The position numbers and the translations under genes were made by a program. From Parabacteroides johnsonii DSM 18315 (lineage in GTDB: Bacteria > Bacteroidota > Bacteroidia > Bacteroidales > Tannerellaceae): a stretch of 64,000 nucleotides of DNA. This document shows, one piece after another, positions 36,707 to 41,425 of this stretch. The notes under the pieces are model-generated. The model did not search any database. It saw only the letters and a program-made list of their open reading frames with translations, and was not told where the DNA came from. The DNA lies in the NCBI RefSeq assembly GCF_025151045.1, contig NZ_CP102285.1:248001-312000 (forward strand), written 5' to 3'. The first letter of the stretch is position 1; each line of letters begins with the position of its first letter.

Positions 36707-37609
36707 ATGGGTATAGAAATTACTTGTAAACTTAAGGAAACGCTTGCCAATATTTTCAAGAGAGAAATAGAAGAACTAGGTTTTGATACATCTTCTTTGA
36801 CTACTAATGATGATGTATTGCAGTCTTACTGTTCATACACCTATCGTCTTATAGATAAAAGGCCCAGGACAATTTACAAAGCAACCTCTTTTACTTGTCC
36901 AGTAGAAGTAGAGATTGGACTAAAATGGTTGGAAGAGAAAATTCGTAAAGGAGAAAGTGTGAATCCTCACTTGAACAATGCTACCAAGAAAGACAAACTT
37001 GATGGGCTTTTGTATGACTGGGGCATACATCATTTGCATTTAGGAGAAACGTTTTCTGCCCCTGGCTATGTAAAGCGTACAGGTCCTGTGCTTTTCGCCA
37101 TTTTTCGTAACGATAATGTATACTTTATTGATATCAGAGACCACGTAGGATGGTCGGATAAAGGACTTTTGGAAATAGTAAACGAGAACTGGCCAGAATT
37201 ACTTTCAATCTATAAGATGGAAGGAGGGAAACCTGAAACCTCATTTGACGAAAAGAATATCACGTTATTAAGAAAATCTGGTGTAAATACTTTTCATGAA
37301 TTATCTACCGGGGATTCATATTTACCTATGGGAGGTGGTATAACGTCAGCAGGGACAAGCATGATGGCAATGCGGAGTTACGTAGAAATGGTCAGAAGGT
37401 TAAATGATATTGGAAAGAACATTAAAGCGAATGCGAAGTATTTTGTGAGTCATGTGGAGCCTAAGGGACGTCCTTTTCGGAATAGATATAAATTCGTTTT
37501 TGTTTGTAGACGGTATGGAGATGAAATTAGATTCTATGATGTCGTGAACAACAACTTTTGGACACAGACATGGAGAGTAAAAACTTTAAGAGAACTTTAC
37601 GGCATATAA
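36707..37609 (+). CDS. first protein of the HEPN operon, unknown family with HHLHLG motif
   Basis: 300 residues, soluble. The central region (~97-165) is the most distinctive: DGLLYDWGIHHLHLG (HHLHLG at 108-113), then VLFAIFRNDNVYFIDIRDHVGW (R144, D145, H146) and LLEIVNENWPEL. The pattern of several H, D and R residues suggests an enzymatic or nucleic-acid-binding site, but I do not recognise the family. Its stop lies 2 bp before the start of the next gene, so it heads a compact operon with three HEPN-type proteins. Possibly the effector or sensor partner of those proteins. Confidence 0.7.
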   Translation: MGIEITCKLKETLANIFKREIEELGFDTSSLTTNDDVLQSYCSYTYRLIDKRPRTIYKATSFTCPVEVEIGLKWLEEKIRKGESVNPHLNNATKKDKLDGLLYDWGIHHLHLGETFSAPGYVKRTGPVLFAIFRNDNVYFIDIRDHVGWSDKGLLEIVNENWPELLSIYKMEGGKPETSFDEKNITLLRKSGVNTFHELSTGDSYLPMGGGITSAGTSMMAMRSYVEMVRRLNDIGKNIKANAKYFVSHVEPKGRPFRNRYKFVFVCRRYGDEIRFYDVVNNNFWTQTWRVKTLRELYGI

Positions 37610-37611
37610 AA

Positions 37612-38595
37612 ATGGTTATGATAGAAAAAGATAAGCGAGAATTGCTTTGGACAGAGAAACGTATTACCTATAACAATACGTGGCCAGAAGCAGGACAGTG
37701 GTATAGTGATGTACAGCAGATGCTAGACGAATGGCTTCATGGGCAAGGGATAACACAAATCTTTGAACCTGTGAAGTTATCAGAAGGGGCAAAAGATATC
37801 CTATTTCCCAATGCGAAATTGAACAAGGTGTTCTCGGGTATCATTGATATCTATGACGAATTACCTTACAGACCAGATGAAGGATTCAATATCGCATGGC
37901 GTTCGCTGGAGATATTTATGAATCATCATAGAAGTATAGCGTGGCCGAAAGATAACGATAAGGCAACTCACCTAATGCTGAGAACAGTAAAAGAGTTGAT
38001 CATGCCTCTTGTCAATAAAGATCTGCGGGTAAAAGAAATGTGGGAGAGGTTTTTAAGTGAAATACCCATTTCTGTATTAAGATTTGCAATTTTGCGCTGC
38101 TTTATCCAACATGATTTGGCTATTACAGATAAAGCAGAAAAAGTTTCGGAAAGGGCAAAAGACATCTTAACGAAAGAATTGTATGCTGATCTTAAAGCCA
38201 AGTATAAACTTGAGGAAACGGTGAAGCCTAGTGCAGACGTGTTGAGGCGGTCTTCGCTTTTGCTCCAGAAGATATTGAGAGGAGAAAAAGTGACGGTGAA
38301 CAGCAATGAATATATGGTTGACATAGAAAACCGGCTATTATTTATGTTGAGTTGTGTGCTTTATACGTATAGGTGTGAACGTTTTCATGGGGACTATTTC
38401 TCTCCTTTTAAGAGCGATAAGGCGACACTAAATACCTATGCTTTTTCATACTATTTGTTGACTTTTAGCTATGTTTATTTGTGGACGTTAATCTATCAGT
38501 TCTGTGAATGGCAAAAGTTAGGAGAAATTTGCTCGCTGTCAAACATCTTGGCAGCAGCTAAAACTATGCAGGAAAGGATGAGATTGATGATTTAA
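37612..38595 (+). CDS. HEPN-domain protein (R-x4-H)
   Basis: 327 residues, taking ATG 37612 just after the previous stop; 37618 is another option and a longer frame would overlap the previous gene. The C-terminal region is helical with the motif YRCERFHGDYFSPF: R254 and H259 fit the R-x4-6-H active site of HEPN ribonucleases, followed by hydrophobic helices (TYAFSYYLLTFSYVYLW). HEPN proteins are RNA-cutting effectors in many toxin-antitoxin and abortive-infection systems. Second gene of the operon. Confidence 0.7.
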   Translation: MVMIEKDKRELLWTEKRITYNNTWPEAGQWYSDVQQMLDEWLHGQGITQIFEPVKLSEGAKDILFPNAKLNKVFSGIIDIYDELPYRPDEGFNIAWRSLEIFMNHHRSIAWPKDNDKATHLMLRTVKELIMPLVNKDLRVKEMWERFLSEIPISVLRFAILRCFIQHDLAITDKAEKVSERAKDILTKELYADLKAKYKLEETVKPSADVLRRSSLLLQKILRGEKVTVNSNEYMVDIENRLLFMLSCVLYTYRCERFHGDYFSPFKSDKATLNTYAFSYYLLTFSYVYLWTLIYQFCEWQKLGEICSLSNILAAAKTMQERMRLMI

Positions 38596-38615
38596 AAATA
38601 AATTAAAGGTAATTT

Positions 38616-39893
38616 ATGGTACAGCGCATATATGTAAAATGTCCCAGTTGCGGGAAAGTATATCAGTTGAAGTTTCAGATAGACCAGACCATAAACATCT
38701 ATGAATGGCCCATCAATTTTGAGTGCGTGGATTGCGGAGATAACCTTACTTATAAATATGGGAAGCGAGGCCTTTCCCCAAGGGAATTTATGTACATGCC
38801 TTCGCCTCAAGACCCACCAATAACAACCATTGGTTATTCTTCATCTCTGCCAATTATTGACGATTTGTATATGAAAGACTTAGACTTTGCACAGTCCATG
38901 GCTCTTTCATCGTTATTTTTGAGTTTATCGTTTAAAAGTCCTTTTTTTTCACTAGAAGAGATTCATAAGTATGATGTGTTCTTAACAAGGATGCAGAATG
39001 GGTTGTTACCCTATAAGGGAGCACTGAATTCACTATTGCCTATCCTGAAGAAAGGGAATGCGGAAGCGTTTAGTCAGAAGATGGCCACATTGTTCGATGT
39101 GAAGAAATATAAGCCCCTTGGCAGTGTTCAGGATATGTATGATTCCTACTTTAAGCTGCTGGAAGTTGTATATTTAAACATTGCTCCACAATACTATCTG
39201 GATGACTGCCATGCAAGGTTTATTAAACCGCTGGAAGACCTTATCAATAAGTTGACTGTAGATGAGGTGCGGAATATCAAAGTTAAACTGGATGCTAGCG
39301 GCTTGATTTCAAAATGGTATAAAGATGAGGTATTGCCTTTTTTAGCTAAGTCTATTGACAACATACAAAAAATTCTACCGGTCATGATATATGCAAGTGC
39401 TGGCATCAAAGATGTGACAGAAAATGGCGATTTGAAGATTGTTACTATAGGTTGTGATGATGTTATGGATTTGTACAAAGAAGGTTATGAGGTATTTGCA
39501 CATAGCTTAAAGATACTTGTAGGATTGAACAATCTTCAAGAGAACGGAGATATAGATGTGTTTACCCATTCTGGGCTAAGCGATGTTGATACTATCACAA
39601 AGTTTGCCGGAAAAGCAGCAGGAAAGATGATAGAAGTTCTTGAAGGGAATGGTGCATTTATGGATTATCTGGACGGTTCAATGAATAATAAAATCAGGAA
39701 TGCTGCTAGTCATAGTGGAGGCATTGATTACGATTCCACGACACAACACATAAAATGCCACTACGATGCAACTGATGATAGTAAGGTATATGAAACGACT
39801 TTGATGTCGGTTTGTAGACTTTGTCATGTATTGATATTACATCTGATAGAAACGACATTACTTGCAAGGAAGATAGTAGAGAAAGCAAAATGA
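38616..39893 (+). CDS. zinc-ribbon plus HEPN-domain protein (RNAxxH)
   Basis: 425 residues. The N terminus is a four-cysteine zinc ribbon (C9-P-S-C12 and C37-V-D-C40). The middle is helical. Near the C terminus, NNKIRNAASHSGG gives R361-N-A-A-S-H366, the classic HEPN RN-x3-H active site, followed by the usual trailing strand and helix (HVLILHLIETTLLARK). The gene follows the previous one by 20 bp and overlaps the next by 4 bp. The zinc ribbon may bind nucleic acid or a partner. Confidence 0.72.
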   Translation: MVQRIYVKCPSCGKVYQLKFQIDQTINIYEWPINFECVDCGDNLTYKYGKRGLSPREFMYMPSPQDPPITTIGYSSSLPIIDDLYMKDLDFAQSMALSSLFLSLSFKSPFFSLEEIHKYDVFLTRMQNGLLPYKGALNSLLPILKKGNAEAFSQKMATLFDVKKYKPLGSVQDMYDSYFKLLEVVYLNIAPQYYLDDCHARFIKPLEDLINKLTVDEVRNIKVKLDASGLISKWYKDEVLPFLAKSIDNIQKILPVMIYASAGIKDVTENGDLKIVTIGCDDVMDLYKEGYEVFAHSLKILVGLNNLQENGDIDVFTHSGLSDVDTITKFAGKAAGKMIEVLEGNGAFMDYLDGSMNNKIRNAASHSGGIDYDSTTQHIKCHYDATDDSKVYETTLMSVCRLCHVLILHLIETTLLARKIVEKAK

Positions 39894-41425
39894 CAGATAT
39901 AAAAGTTATATATAAGGAGGCTTCAAAAGAGACTGTAGAGAACCTGATAGGCAACTTCTCAAAGACCATCGAGGATTTGTACAAGAAGGTAGTAGAAGAT
40001 ATTTCACTCTTGAAAGAATTAAATGAAGATGTACCACAATTGCTAAGACTGGCTGTAGAACTGCGGATGGACATGAGGTTTATATTGATAGACCTGATGA
40101 CCAGTTTAAGGGGCAGTTTGAATGGTACATACACCTTTGAGAAATGCTATCATATCAAGAACCTTGAAGGTATTAGGGTGGAGGGATGCCGTTTGCTATT
40201 AGGTCATGGTGAAGAAAGAGAGGGGGCAGTATGGACGAAGCTCGGATGTGAACTTAGACATGAATACCAAAGATTCGAAAGGAGTAAGTATGCTCAGGTA
40301 TATGAACAGTTAGTAGCCCTTTATGACAAGGTGTCAACGCAATTGAGAGCCGTGATGACAACCAATGAAGAGCGTAAAAGTAGGAATCTTACTTACCATT
40401 ATGATGATGACCTCTATAAAGTGTATAAACAACTCGTAAAGGTAAAAGATAAAGGCGAGGATGACCCCATGAAATGCGTAATTCCGTGGATGGATGCACT
40501 GCTTTGGATACAGGTATTATGTGATACTATTGAATACGTGGAGGCCTTGCAGGGAAATACATTTTCTAAGGTGACAGGTTTTCATCATTTTCAAATCAAT
40601 GTTATCAAACAAGATTTCTACAAACGAATGGTTTCTGAATTTTCAAAAAATGATCAATTGAAGGAAGTGCTCGGTAAGGTGCTTAAAGATATTGATAGCA
40701 TTGACTGGGCCGCTAAAGAAAAGGATAAACTAGGACGGTTGGGAGACTGGTTGGGCGAGAACGCACTCAAACAAGACAAACCAAAGACAATAAAGGACAT
40801 GAAAGACTTAATGAATGTTTATCTTCTGGTGGAAATGTCTTTTGCTGATATGGCTTGTGTCATGAGGGCTTTTATGAATGCAGGAAGTGATATAGAATAC
40901 CCCTTGACATTTCGTCGATTGCTTGTATCAAAGGTTTCAACGCTTGGCCATCTTGTCGGATATAATGATGCAGAAAAAGGAAATGCACTTTGGACATTTA
41001 TACAGAAAGCTGTTCCAACTGATGCTGCAAAGTTGAAAACTGAAGCGGCGGAAATTCGAATTGAGTTAGAAAGTCTTTTAAAGCAGGAGAATGTGAAGCG
41101 GAGGGCTTTGTACGTGCACTATTTGGACAGAGATACCAACGAAAGTAATGTTCTTCGCATATTAGAAAGTGTTGAAGGAATTGATTTGCTGATAGAAATC
41201 AATGCTTATTCAACGTTTATAAAGATTATGGGTAGAATCCGAAAGTTCTTGAAGAGCCTAATGGCTGAGTTTGCGATAAGAGTGGATAAGACCAGGAAAG
41301 CGAGCAATATCAAGATGAGAGTCCAGATAAAAAGATTAAGACAACTTCTGAAAGACCCCAAATGTCCAGCTGAACTGAGGATATCGTTCAATAAAACGCT
41401 TTACCAGATGGAGAATTTTTTTTAA
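39890..41425 (+). CDS. double HEPN-like protein (two R-x4-H motifs)
   Basis: 511 residues, starting at ATG 39890 inside the ATGA overlap with the preceding gene; an upstream start would run back into it. Two halves look related. Residues ~65-180 end in KSRNLTYHYDDD (R165, H170), and ~310-425 end in KRRALYVHYLDRD (R405, H410). Each is preceded by a similar helical stretch with LLLGHGEEREGAVWTKL in the first and LGHLVGYNDAEKGNALWTFI in the second. Both R-x4-H motifs fit HEPN active sites, suggesting an internal duplication that gives a built-in dimer. Last gene of the operon. Confidence 0.7.
   Translation: MTDIKVIYKEASKETVENLIGNFSKTIEDLYKKVVEDISLLKELNEDVPQLLRLAVELRMDMRFILIDLMTSLRGSLNGTYTFEKCYHIKNLEGIRVEGCRLLLGHGEEREGAVWTKLGCELRHEYQRFERSKYAQVYEQLVALYDKVSTQLRAVMTTNEERKSRNLTYHYDDDLYKVYKQLVKVKDKGEDDPMKCVIPWMDALLWIQVLCDTIEYVEALQGNTFSKVTGFHHFQINVIKQDFYKRMVSEFSKNDQLKEVLGKVLKDIDSIDWAAKEKDKLGRLGDWLGENALKQDKPKTIKDMKDLMNVYLLVEMSFADMACVMRAFMNAGSDIEYPLTFRRLLVSKVSTLGHLVGYNDAEKGNALWTFIQKAVPTDAAKLKTEAAEIRIELESLLKQENVKRRALYVHYLDRDTNESNVLRILESVEGIDLLIEINAYSTFIKIMGRIRKFLKSLMAEFAIRVDKTRKASNIKMRVQIKRLRQLLKDPKCPAELRISFNKTLYQMENFF

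What the first reader, a model, noticed from the sequence alone, without database searches (positions are those of the whole stretch)
36707..41425. Four-gene operon with four HEPN active-site motifs in three proteins, candidate new defence or toxin system
Seen: four plus-strand genes, tightly packed (2-bp gap, 20-bp gap, 4-bp overlap), encode a 300-residue protein of unknown family and three proteins with R-x4-H motifs. These are RCERFH (R254/H259), RNAASH (R361/H366, with a four-cysteine zinc ribbon), and RNLTYH plus RALYVH in one duplicated protein (R165/H170 and R405/H410). Known: R-x4-6-H is the active site of HEPN ribonucleases, common in toxin-antitoxin, abortive infection and CRISPR effectors. 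Inference: together with the HHLHLG protein they form one system, and the island context points to antiphage function. I know no described system with this composition.
Basis: partly seen in the sequence, partly recalled or inferred. Interest (0 to 1): 0.78.

Follow-up and report, generated by a model that had tools for sequence, protein, structure and literature searches.

The report
Candidate four-gene RNase anti-phage cassette
Four neighbouring bacterial genes that travel together encode one relative of a known anti-phage protein and three undescribed proteins with the signature of RNA-cutting enzymes, so they probably form a rare, previously undescribed anti-virus system.

The parts
36707..37609 (+). 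g1: PD-T4-7 family protein (300 aa; W-x-IHHLHLG motif); candidate sensor or toxin component
   Evidence: PADLOC PDLC04066 E 8.7e-46, residues 21-256; 63% identical to g1 of L001 and of L002
37612..38595 (+). g2: HEPN-like protein (327 aa), motif RCERFHGDYFSP at 254-265
38371..38388 (+). g2 R-x4-H motif codons (R254-H259)
38616..39893 (+). g3: N-terminal CxxC...CxxC zinc ribbon plus C-terminal R-N-A-x-x-H (425 aa)
   Evidence: A2: R361, N362, H366 27 of 27; each of the four cysteines 25 of 27, the two exceptions (P0159, P0160) having foreign or missing N-termini
39696..39713 (+). g3 R-x4-H motif codons (R361-H366)
39890..41425 (+). g4: internally duplicated protein (511 aa) with two R-x4-H motifs
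   Evidence: A3: R165, H170, R405, H410 32 of 32; halves align, hhalign probability 96, E 4e-9; all-helical AF2 model, pLDDT 84
40382..40399 (+). g4 first R-x4-H motif codons (R165-H170)
41102..41119 (+). g4 second R-x4-H motif codons (R405-H410)

Best explanation
The four genes are one anti-phage cassette that works by abortive infection through HEPN-type RNA cleavage. Shown: four adjacent genes; g1 belongs to the PD-T4-7 family; g2, g3 and g4 each keep intact R-x4-H sites (g4 two, by internal duplication); g1-g2-g3 stay together in two other genomes, with g4 or an Mrr-like nuclease gene in the last slot. Inferred: the products sit together in an inactive state. A phage cue, read through PD-T4-7 (g1) and/or the zinc ribbon of g3, releases the RNases. 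HEPN sites are usually built from two R/H sets (recalled, not from a call), so g4 would supply a complete site within one chain and g2 with g3 (the pair also found together in L017) would make a composite site. RNA is then cut and the infected cell stops growing before phage is released.
For: g1 = PD-T4-7, reported as toxin-like and abortive (PMC9519451, passages, section 7). Motif conservation holds down to about 22-34% identity in L010, L011, L013, L017. g2 fold: 6 of the top 7 VIA rows are AbiV, Csm6 or other HEPN domains, with the motif at a helix end and following loop, as described for HEPN (PMC3710099 section 7). g4 halves are homologous, motifs in register. Cassette order is kept in L002 (g1-g2-g3-g4, between a cupin/DUF6016 gene and a pyruvate:ferredoxin oxidoreductase gene) and L001 (g1-g2-g3). 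Shared longest-contig lengths: g2-g3 10 vs 0.36 expected, g3-g4 8 vs 0.38, g2-g4 5 vs 0.21. Defence surroundings: type I RM, GmrSD-like, Tmn-like, RhuM and PDC genes. g2 relatives adjoin Cas13b, with CRISPR arrays about 3 kb off, in L010 and L033.
Against: No activity, complex or phage phenotype was tested. VIA Z for g2 is below 8, Foldseek found nothing at E<=0.001, and an unrelated designed protein ranks 6th. g4: none of the 50 VIA rows listed is named a HEPN. g3 was not folded. hhalign finds no relationship between g2, g3 and g4 (probability at most 2.9) or to Cas13b HEPN regions (at most 6.5). Only three loci with contiguous g1-g2-g3 were seen, two with g4. L017 has g3-g2 with no g4 within the 12 kb read; its contig starts only 0.3-0.4 kb upstream of g3, so g1 cannot be judged. 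The g2 relatives in L010 and L033 have no g1, g3 or g4 in the stretch read. PD-T4-7 protects in E. coli without g2-g4 (single-gene status recalled; the paper's operon drawing is not held), so g1 may not need the partners.
Confidence: 0.55

Rival explanations
1. Two systems side by side: a self-sufficient PD-T4-7 abortive gene and a separate g2-g3(-g4) HEPN system that happen to be neighbours in defence islands.
For: PD-T4-7 relatives had no g2-g4 relatives in 8 of 8 neighbourhoods opened elsewhere; L017 shows g3-g2 with g1 not seen (but the contig ends 0.3-0.4 kb upstream); lone g4-like (L011) and g2-like (L010, L033) genes exist.
Against: In the three loci where g2 adjoins g3 and the upstream side is available (window, L001, L002) g1 lies directly upstream of g2 within a few tens of bp, and in L002 the genes on either side are metabolic (a PDC-S01-type ATPase lies about 7 kb away).
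Confidence: 0.22
2. Toxin-antitoxin arrangement: one product (PD-T4-7 or a HEPN protein) is a toxin and the others are antitoxin and accessory subunits, with the invariant R/H used for binding rather than cleavage in some of them.
For: PD-T4-7 is grouped with TA-like Abi systems in the source paper; tight operon packing.
Against: No antitoxin family recognised in Pfam, NCBIfam or PADLOC for g1-g4; PD-T4-7 occurs without g2-g4 relatives elsewhere (8 of 8); R/H pairs are invariant in all three HEPN-like proteins, unlike the decay expected of pure antitoxins (inference).
Confidence: 0.13
3. Not defence: a house-keeping or regulatory RNA-processing operon.
For: No phage test exists for g2-g4; in L002 the cassette's nearest neighbours are metabolic genes.
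Against: Sparse distribution (A2: 1 of 295 genomes of the order and 1 of 123 of the family, both the window's own genome); low-GC island; defence neighbours and the Cas13b-linked g2 relatives.
Confidence: 0.05

Closest known systems
PD-T4-7 (Vassallo et al. 2022, E. coli abortive-infection gene; PADLOC PDLC04065/04066)
   Same: g1 matches over residues 21-256 at E 8.7e-46; conserved D-x-L-x3-W-x-I-x-H-x-H-L core in 5 of 5 aligned relatives
   Different: No g2-g4 relatives in 8 of 8 neighbourhoods opened elsewhere (in L027 a DEAD/DEAH helicase gene follows 47 bp downstream); here it heads a four-gene operon with three HEPN-like partners
AbiV and other HEPN abortive-infection RNases
   Different: 9% identity over that alignment; g2 has a canonical R-x4-H, whose H AbiV typically lacks according to PMC3710099 (passages); different operon partners
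Cas13 (tandem HEPN in one chain)
   Same: g4 also carries two R-x4-H sites in one polypeptide; g2 R-x4-HGDY and g3 RNAxSH resemble the HEPN2 (RNxFAHGDYP) and HEPN1 (RNNASH) motifs of the Cas13b proteins in L010/L033 (naming these stretches HEPN1 and HEPN2 is recalled)
   Different: No profile-level similarity (hhalign probability at most 6.5); no CRISPR-like array among the 20 largest of 56 repeat families in window 34000-62000; no guide-binding region recognised
Csm6/Csx1 HEPN effectors
   Different: No CARF or other ligand domain in Pfam scans; no type III CRISPR gene among the neighbours scanned

Membership tests
PD-T4-7 protein family (g1) | Profile match across most of the protein | tested here: met
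   PDLC04066 E 8.7e-46, residues 21-256 of 300; found again in the genome search (E 1.7e-44)
PD-T4-7 as a single-gene system | Gene occurs without g2-g4 partners | tested here: not met
   Followed by g2-g3(-g4) in window, L001, L002; no such partners in 8 of 8 other neighbourhoods. Says nothing on whether g1 could act alone
HEPN superfamily (g2) | Conserved R-x4-6-H motif | tested here: met
   R254 29 of 30, H259 30 of 30
HEPN superfamily (g2) | Motif at the end of a helix and start of the following loop | tested here: met
   Helix 238-255, H259 in the loop, next helix 273-301; criterion from PMC3710099 section 7. Loop residues 259-263 have pLDDT below 50
HEPN superfamily (g2) | Four-helix HEPN fold | tested here: inconclusive
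HEPN superfamily (g3) | Conserved R-x4-6-H motif | tested here: met
   R361, N362, H366 27 of 27; R and H kept in L017 and L013 at 27% and 22% identity
HEPN superfamily (g3) | HEPN fold | not tested
   Structure-prediction cap (2 jobs) spent on g2 and g4
HEPN superfamily (g4) | Conserved R-x4-6-H motif (two copies) | tested here: met
   R165, H170, R405, H410 32 of 32; both pairs kept in L002 and in lone L011
HEPN superfamily (g4) | HEPN fold | tested here: inconclusive
   All-helical model with motifs at helix end and loop; no row named HEPN among 50 VIA rows; nothing at E<=0.001 in BFVD; halves were not folded alone
HEPN RNases | RNase activity dependent on R and H | not testable with these tools
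   needs an experiment
Cas13 / type VI CRISPR (g4) | CRISPR array and guide-dependent effector | tested here: not met
   No CRISPR-like array among the 20 largest of 56 repeat families of window 34000-62000; g4 has no PADLOC match at E<=1, Cas13 models included

The most novel reading that the evidence does not exclude
A guide-free, multi-RNase immune complex. PD-T4-7 is the infection-sensing gate. g2 and g3 form a hetero-HEPN composite RNase whose two halves play the parts of HEPN2 and HEPN1 of Cas13b, and g4 is a single-chain tandem HEPN RNase. The last slot is exchangeable (tandem HEPN or Mrr-like nuclease), so the system is a platform with swappable effectors, and the g2 subunit has also been taken up by some Cas13b loci as an accessory RNase.
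Probability: 0.22. Interest if true: 0.8.

Novelty: new variant of a known kind. Interest (0 to 1): 0.62.

Why it matters
HEPN RNases recur throughout bacterial immunity (abortive infection, CRISPR effectors, toxin-antitoxin). A cassette with four conserved HEPN motifs in three mutually unrelated proteins, led by a PD-T4-7 homologue, would be an unusual concentration of them, and it gives three protein families without a described function a testable role. It would also give PD-T4-7, for which I saw no mechanism (6 papers listed, one of them, PMC9519451, read in part), a set of natural partners. The exchange of the last gene and the re-use of the g2 family next to Cas13b suggest a modular RNase toolkit in Bacteroidota.

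Tried and rejected
Rejected: 'protein of unknown family' for g1 (PADLOC hit). Rejected as evidence: the number of R-x4-H motifs alone (background). Rejected: the weak Pfam hits of g2-g4. For the window proteins they lie below the curated cut-offs; among alignment members (cut-offs not shown) the best E is 0.0005 and no family matches more than 7 of 32 or 4 of 30 members in g4 or g2; in g3 only zinc-binding models recur to any extent (up to 11 of 27), which agrees with its CxxC pairs. Also rejected: PDB sequence hits (none for g2; best E 0.032 for g3, 0.33 for g4) and the PADLOC PtuA hit of g2 at E 0.045. Rejected: g2, g3 and g4 as copies of one another (hhalign probability at most 2.9 between different proteins; the 100% for g2C-g2N is trivial because those stretches overlap). 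Rejected: profile-level homology of g2, g3 or g4 to Cas13b HEPN regions. Led nowhere: viral contigs for A1-A3 (none confirmed), phage records for g1 and g4, plasmids for g2 and g4, g4 fold searches; no HEPN family is listed among the g4 rows, which does not exclude one. PHROGs was not searched. Loci L018 and L019 (outer flanks of the window) were fetched but not analysed. Considered and dropped: a claim that g2 is a general Cas13b accessory. In that genome family 6 Cas13b loci were found in 5 of 18 genomes and 2 of the 6 have a g2 relative; L040, L041 and L043 lie on short contigs.

It also called PD-T4-7 'stand-alone' elsewhere, where only the absence of g2-g4 relatives was seen.

Limits: A1, A2 and A3 hold the query plus 29 of 65, 26 of 92 and 31 of 74 homologues found (near-duplicates and most fragments left out by me). 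Of 15 plasmid hits for g1, 6 were opened. The genome-contig scan works through short peptide patterns, so its 2 loci are a lower bound.
Full report
What is there. Four plus-strand ORFs lie at 36707-37609 (g1, 300 aa), 37612-38595 (g2, 327 aa), 38616-39893 (g3, 425 aa) and 39890-41425 (g4, 511 aa), with a 2-bp gap, a 20-bp gap and a 4-bp overlap (junctions). Window 36-42 kb has 38% GC and 34-60 kb 37%; most of the rest has 44-56%, except another AT-rich stretch at 14-20 kb (36-39%). The island is rich in defence genes: an AAA/DUF4143 protein (PDC-S01) upstream and a DUF234 ATPase (PDC-S27) downstream, two HsdM genes, two HsdS genes with a tyrosine integrase between them, HsdR, a GmrSD-N protein, a Tmn-like P-loop protein, RhuM (PDC-S05) and a relaxase. 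The genome is 4.75 Mb in one contig.

More than chance? R-x4-H occurs 30 times in 17,845 residues of 43 non-overlapping window ORFs, so six hits in the cassette are only two to three times expectation. Evolution is the test. I aligned the query plus 29 of 65 g2 homologues, 26 of 92 g3 homologues and 31 of 74 g4 homologues. g3 R361/N362/H366 and g4 R165/H170 and R405/H410 are identical in every row; g2 H259 is identical in 30 of 30 and R254 in 29 of 30. Only 3.5-7.5% of columns are fully invariant in these alignments. The two other R-x4-H hits in g2 and g4 are not conserved as pairs. Each g3 cysteine is kept in 25 of 27 rows; the two exceptions have foreign or missing N-termini. Homologues outside the alignments at 22-34% identity (L010, L011, L013, L017, g2 of L001, g4 of L002) keep R and H too.

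Protein 1. Pfam and NCBIfam give no match at cut-off, but PADLOC gives PD-T4-7 at E 8.7e-46. In PMC9519451 (passages, section 7) PD-T4-7 is listed among systems with similarity to toxic proteins that act by abortive infection. Which of the domains described there belongs to PD-T4-7 is in a figure not held here. PD-T4-7 relatives are found in 3 of 198 genomes of the order, the window's own included, and in 15 plasmid records of several phyla. Eight neighbourhoods outside the cassette were opened (2 genomes, 6 of 15 plasmids) and none had g2, g3 or g4 relatives in the stretch fetched; in one of them (L027, Hymenobacter) a DEAD/DEAH helicase gene follows 47 bp downstream.

Is it one unit? In L002 (Bacteroidia MAG RUG13567) g1-g2-g3-g4 stand in the same order between a cupin/DUF6016 gene and a pyruvate:ferredoxin oxidoreductase gene, with a glycosyltransferase, a radical SAM protein and a peptidase further out; a PDC-S01-type ATPase lies about 7 kb downstream. 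In L001 (Prevotellaceae MAG RUG278) an HTH gene, a HipA-like gene and g1-g2-g3 are followed, 19 bp after g3, by a gene with a weak Mrr-type nuclease match (PF13156, E 7e-4, 19.9 bits against a cut-off of 22), and that genome has no g4 match. L017 has g3 and g2 overlapping by 4 bp, with no g4 in the 12 kb read; its contig begins only 0.3-0.4 kb before g3, so g1 cannot be judged. Components evolve unevenly: against the window, L001 is 63% (g1), 33% (g2) and 56% (g3) identical; L002 is 63%, 63%, 57% and 34%, which points to exchange of single parts. As an indirect check, the three families share identical longest-contig lengths more often than expected: g2-g3 10 (mean 0.36, maximum 4 in 5000 jittered sets), g3-g4 8 (0.38, maximum 4), g2-g4 5 (0.21, maximum 3); three lengths occur in all three lists. 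That equal lengths mean the same contig is an inference. Relatives without the others also exist: g2-like in L010 and L033, g4-like in L011. The cassette is rare: A2 hits 1 of 295 genomes of the order and 1 of 123 of the family, in each case only the window's genome, and a pattern scan of genome contigs gave 2 loci; A1 hits 2 of 295, 2 of 101, 1 of 347, 1 of 31 and 2 of 18, the centre genome counted each time; A3 hits 3 of 295.

A side link to CRISPR. In L010 and L033, two genomes of one genus, the g2 relative lies tail to tail with a Cas13b gene (E 1.3e-115 and 1e-147 in PADLOC; 96 and 57 bp apart), with a CRISPR array of 18 and 16 repeats about 3 kb off and PtuAB-like or AriAB-like genes between. 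The two g2 relatives are 30% identical and the two Cas13b 42% over their larger aligned part. Four other Cas13b loci of that genome family have no g2 relative in the stretch fetched. The tree groups the two with P0057-P0060, but their branches are long and the placement is flagged as unsure. The motif of g2 (R-x4-HGDY) resembles the C-terminal motif of these two Cas13b proteins, and g3 RNAASH resembles their N-terminal RNNASH, but profile comparison gives no support (probability at most 6.5), and the HGDY part is absent from the other four Cas13b proteins. Csx28 and Csx27 are the known accessory proteins of Cas13b (PMC12669027 passages); no PADLOC model matched the g2 relatives at E 0.01.

How it probably works. 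Shown: linkage, conservation, the PD-T4-7 identity of g1, the duplication in g4. Inferred: RNA cleavage by HEPN sites, with g4 supplying two sites in one chain and g2 with g3 a composite site; activation by phage through g1 and/or g3; abortive outcome by analogy with PD-T4-7. I put the general reading (one anti-phage cassette acting through HEPN RNases) at 0.55 and the detailed one (the section on the most novel reading) at 0.22.

Known or new? HEPN-based abortive systems and PD-T4-7 are known; PADLOC-DB 2.0.0 gave no confident match for g2, g3 or g4, and I found no paper on this composition in the searches (listings seen; passages or sections read from PMC9519451, PMC3710099 and PMC12669027 only). 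bioRxiv as such and most subscription papers are not held. I therefore file it as a new variant of a known kind.

Noticed in passing
L010:4057-9105 and L033:4183-8703: g2-family HEPN-like gene tail to tail with Cas13b, with CRISPR arrays of 18 and 16 repeats about 3 kb off and Septu-like (L010) or PARIS AriAB-like (L033) genes between; a candidate Cas13b accessory in one genus (2 of 6 Cas13b loci of that genome family).
   Followed up: partly
L013:6269-7681: Lactococcus petauri plasmid protein with the g3 layout (zinc ribbon, RNAIQH) plus a C-terminal SEC-C motif, beside Fic and mobilisation genes.
   Followed up: partly
L001:7911-9053: Gene with a weak Mrr-type nuclease match occupies the g4 slot directly after g3 in a Prevotellaceae genome; exchangeable effector position.
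   Followed up: partly
window:43411-52743: Type I RM locus with two HsdM genes and two HsdS genes flanking a tyrosine integrase, with short repeats shared by the HsdS genes (46954, 48596, 49157); looks like a specificity-switching locus.
   Followed up: no
window:41528-41881: HTH gene with a weak, below cut-off HipB-type match and no HipA next to it (a DUF234 ATPase follows), while an HTH gene and a HipA-like gene lie directly upstream of g1 in L001.
   Followed up: no
window:34965-35080: Four copies of ATTCG(C/T)TTGAAAAA(A/G)TGT at 32-33 bp spacing just upstream of the DUF4143 ATPase gene; possible operator array.
   Followed up: no
window:54641-58267: 1208-aa YobI-type P-loop protein matching Tmn in its N-terminal half (E 1e-82), between GmrSD-N and RhuM genes.
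   Followed up: no
L011:8065-9555: Lone g4-like gene (about 22% identical) keeping both R-x4-H motifs; a simpler relative for testing tandem HEPN function.
   Followed up: partly
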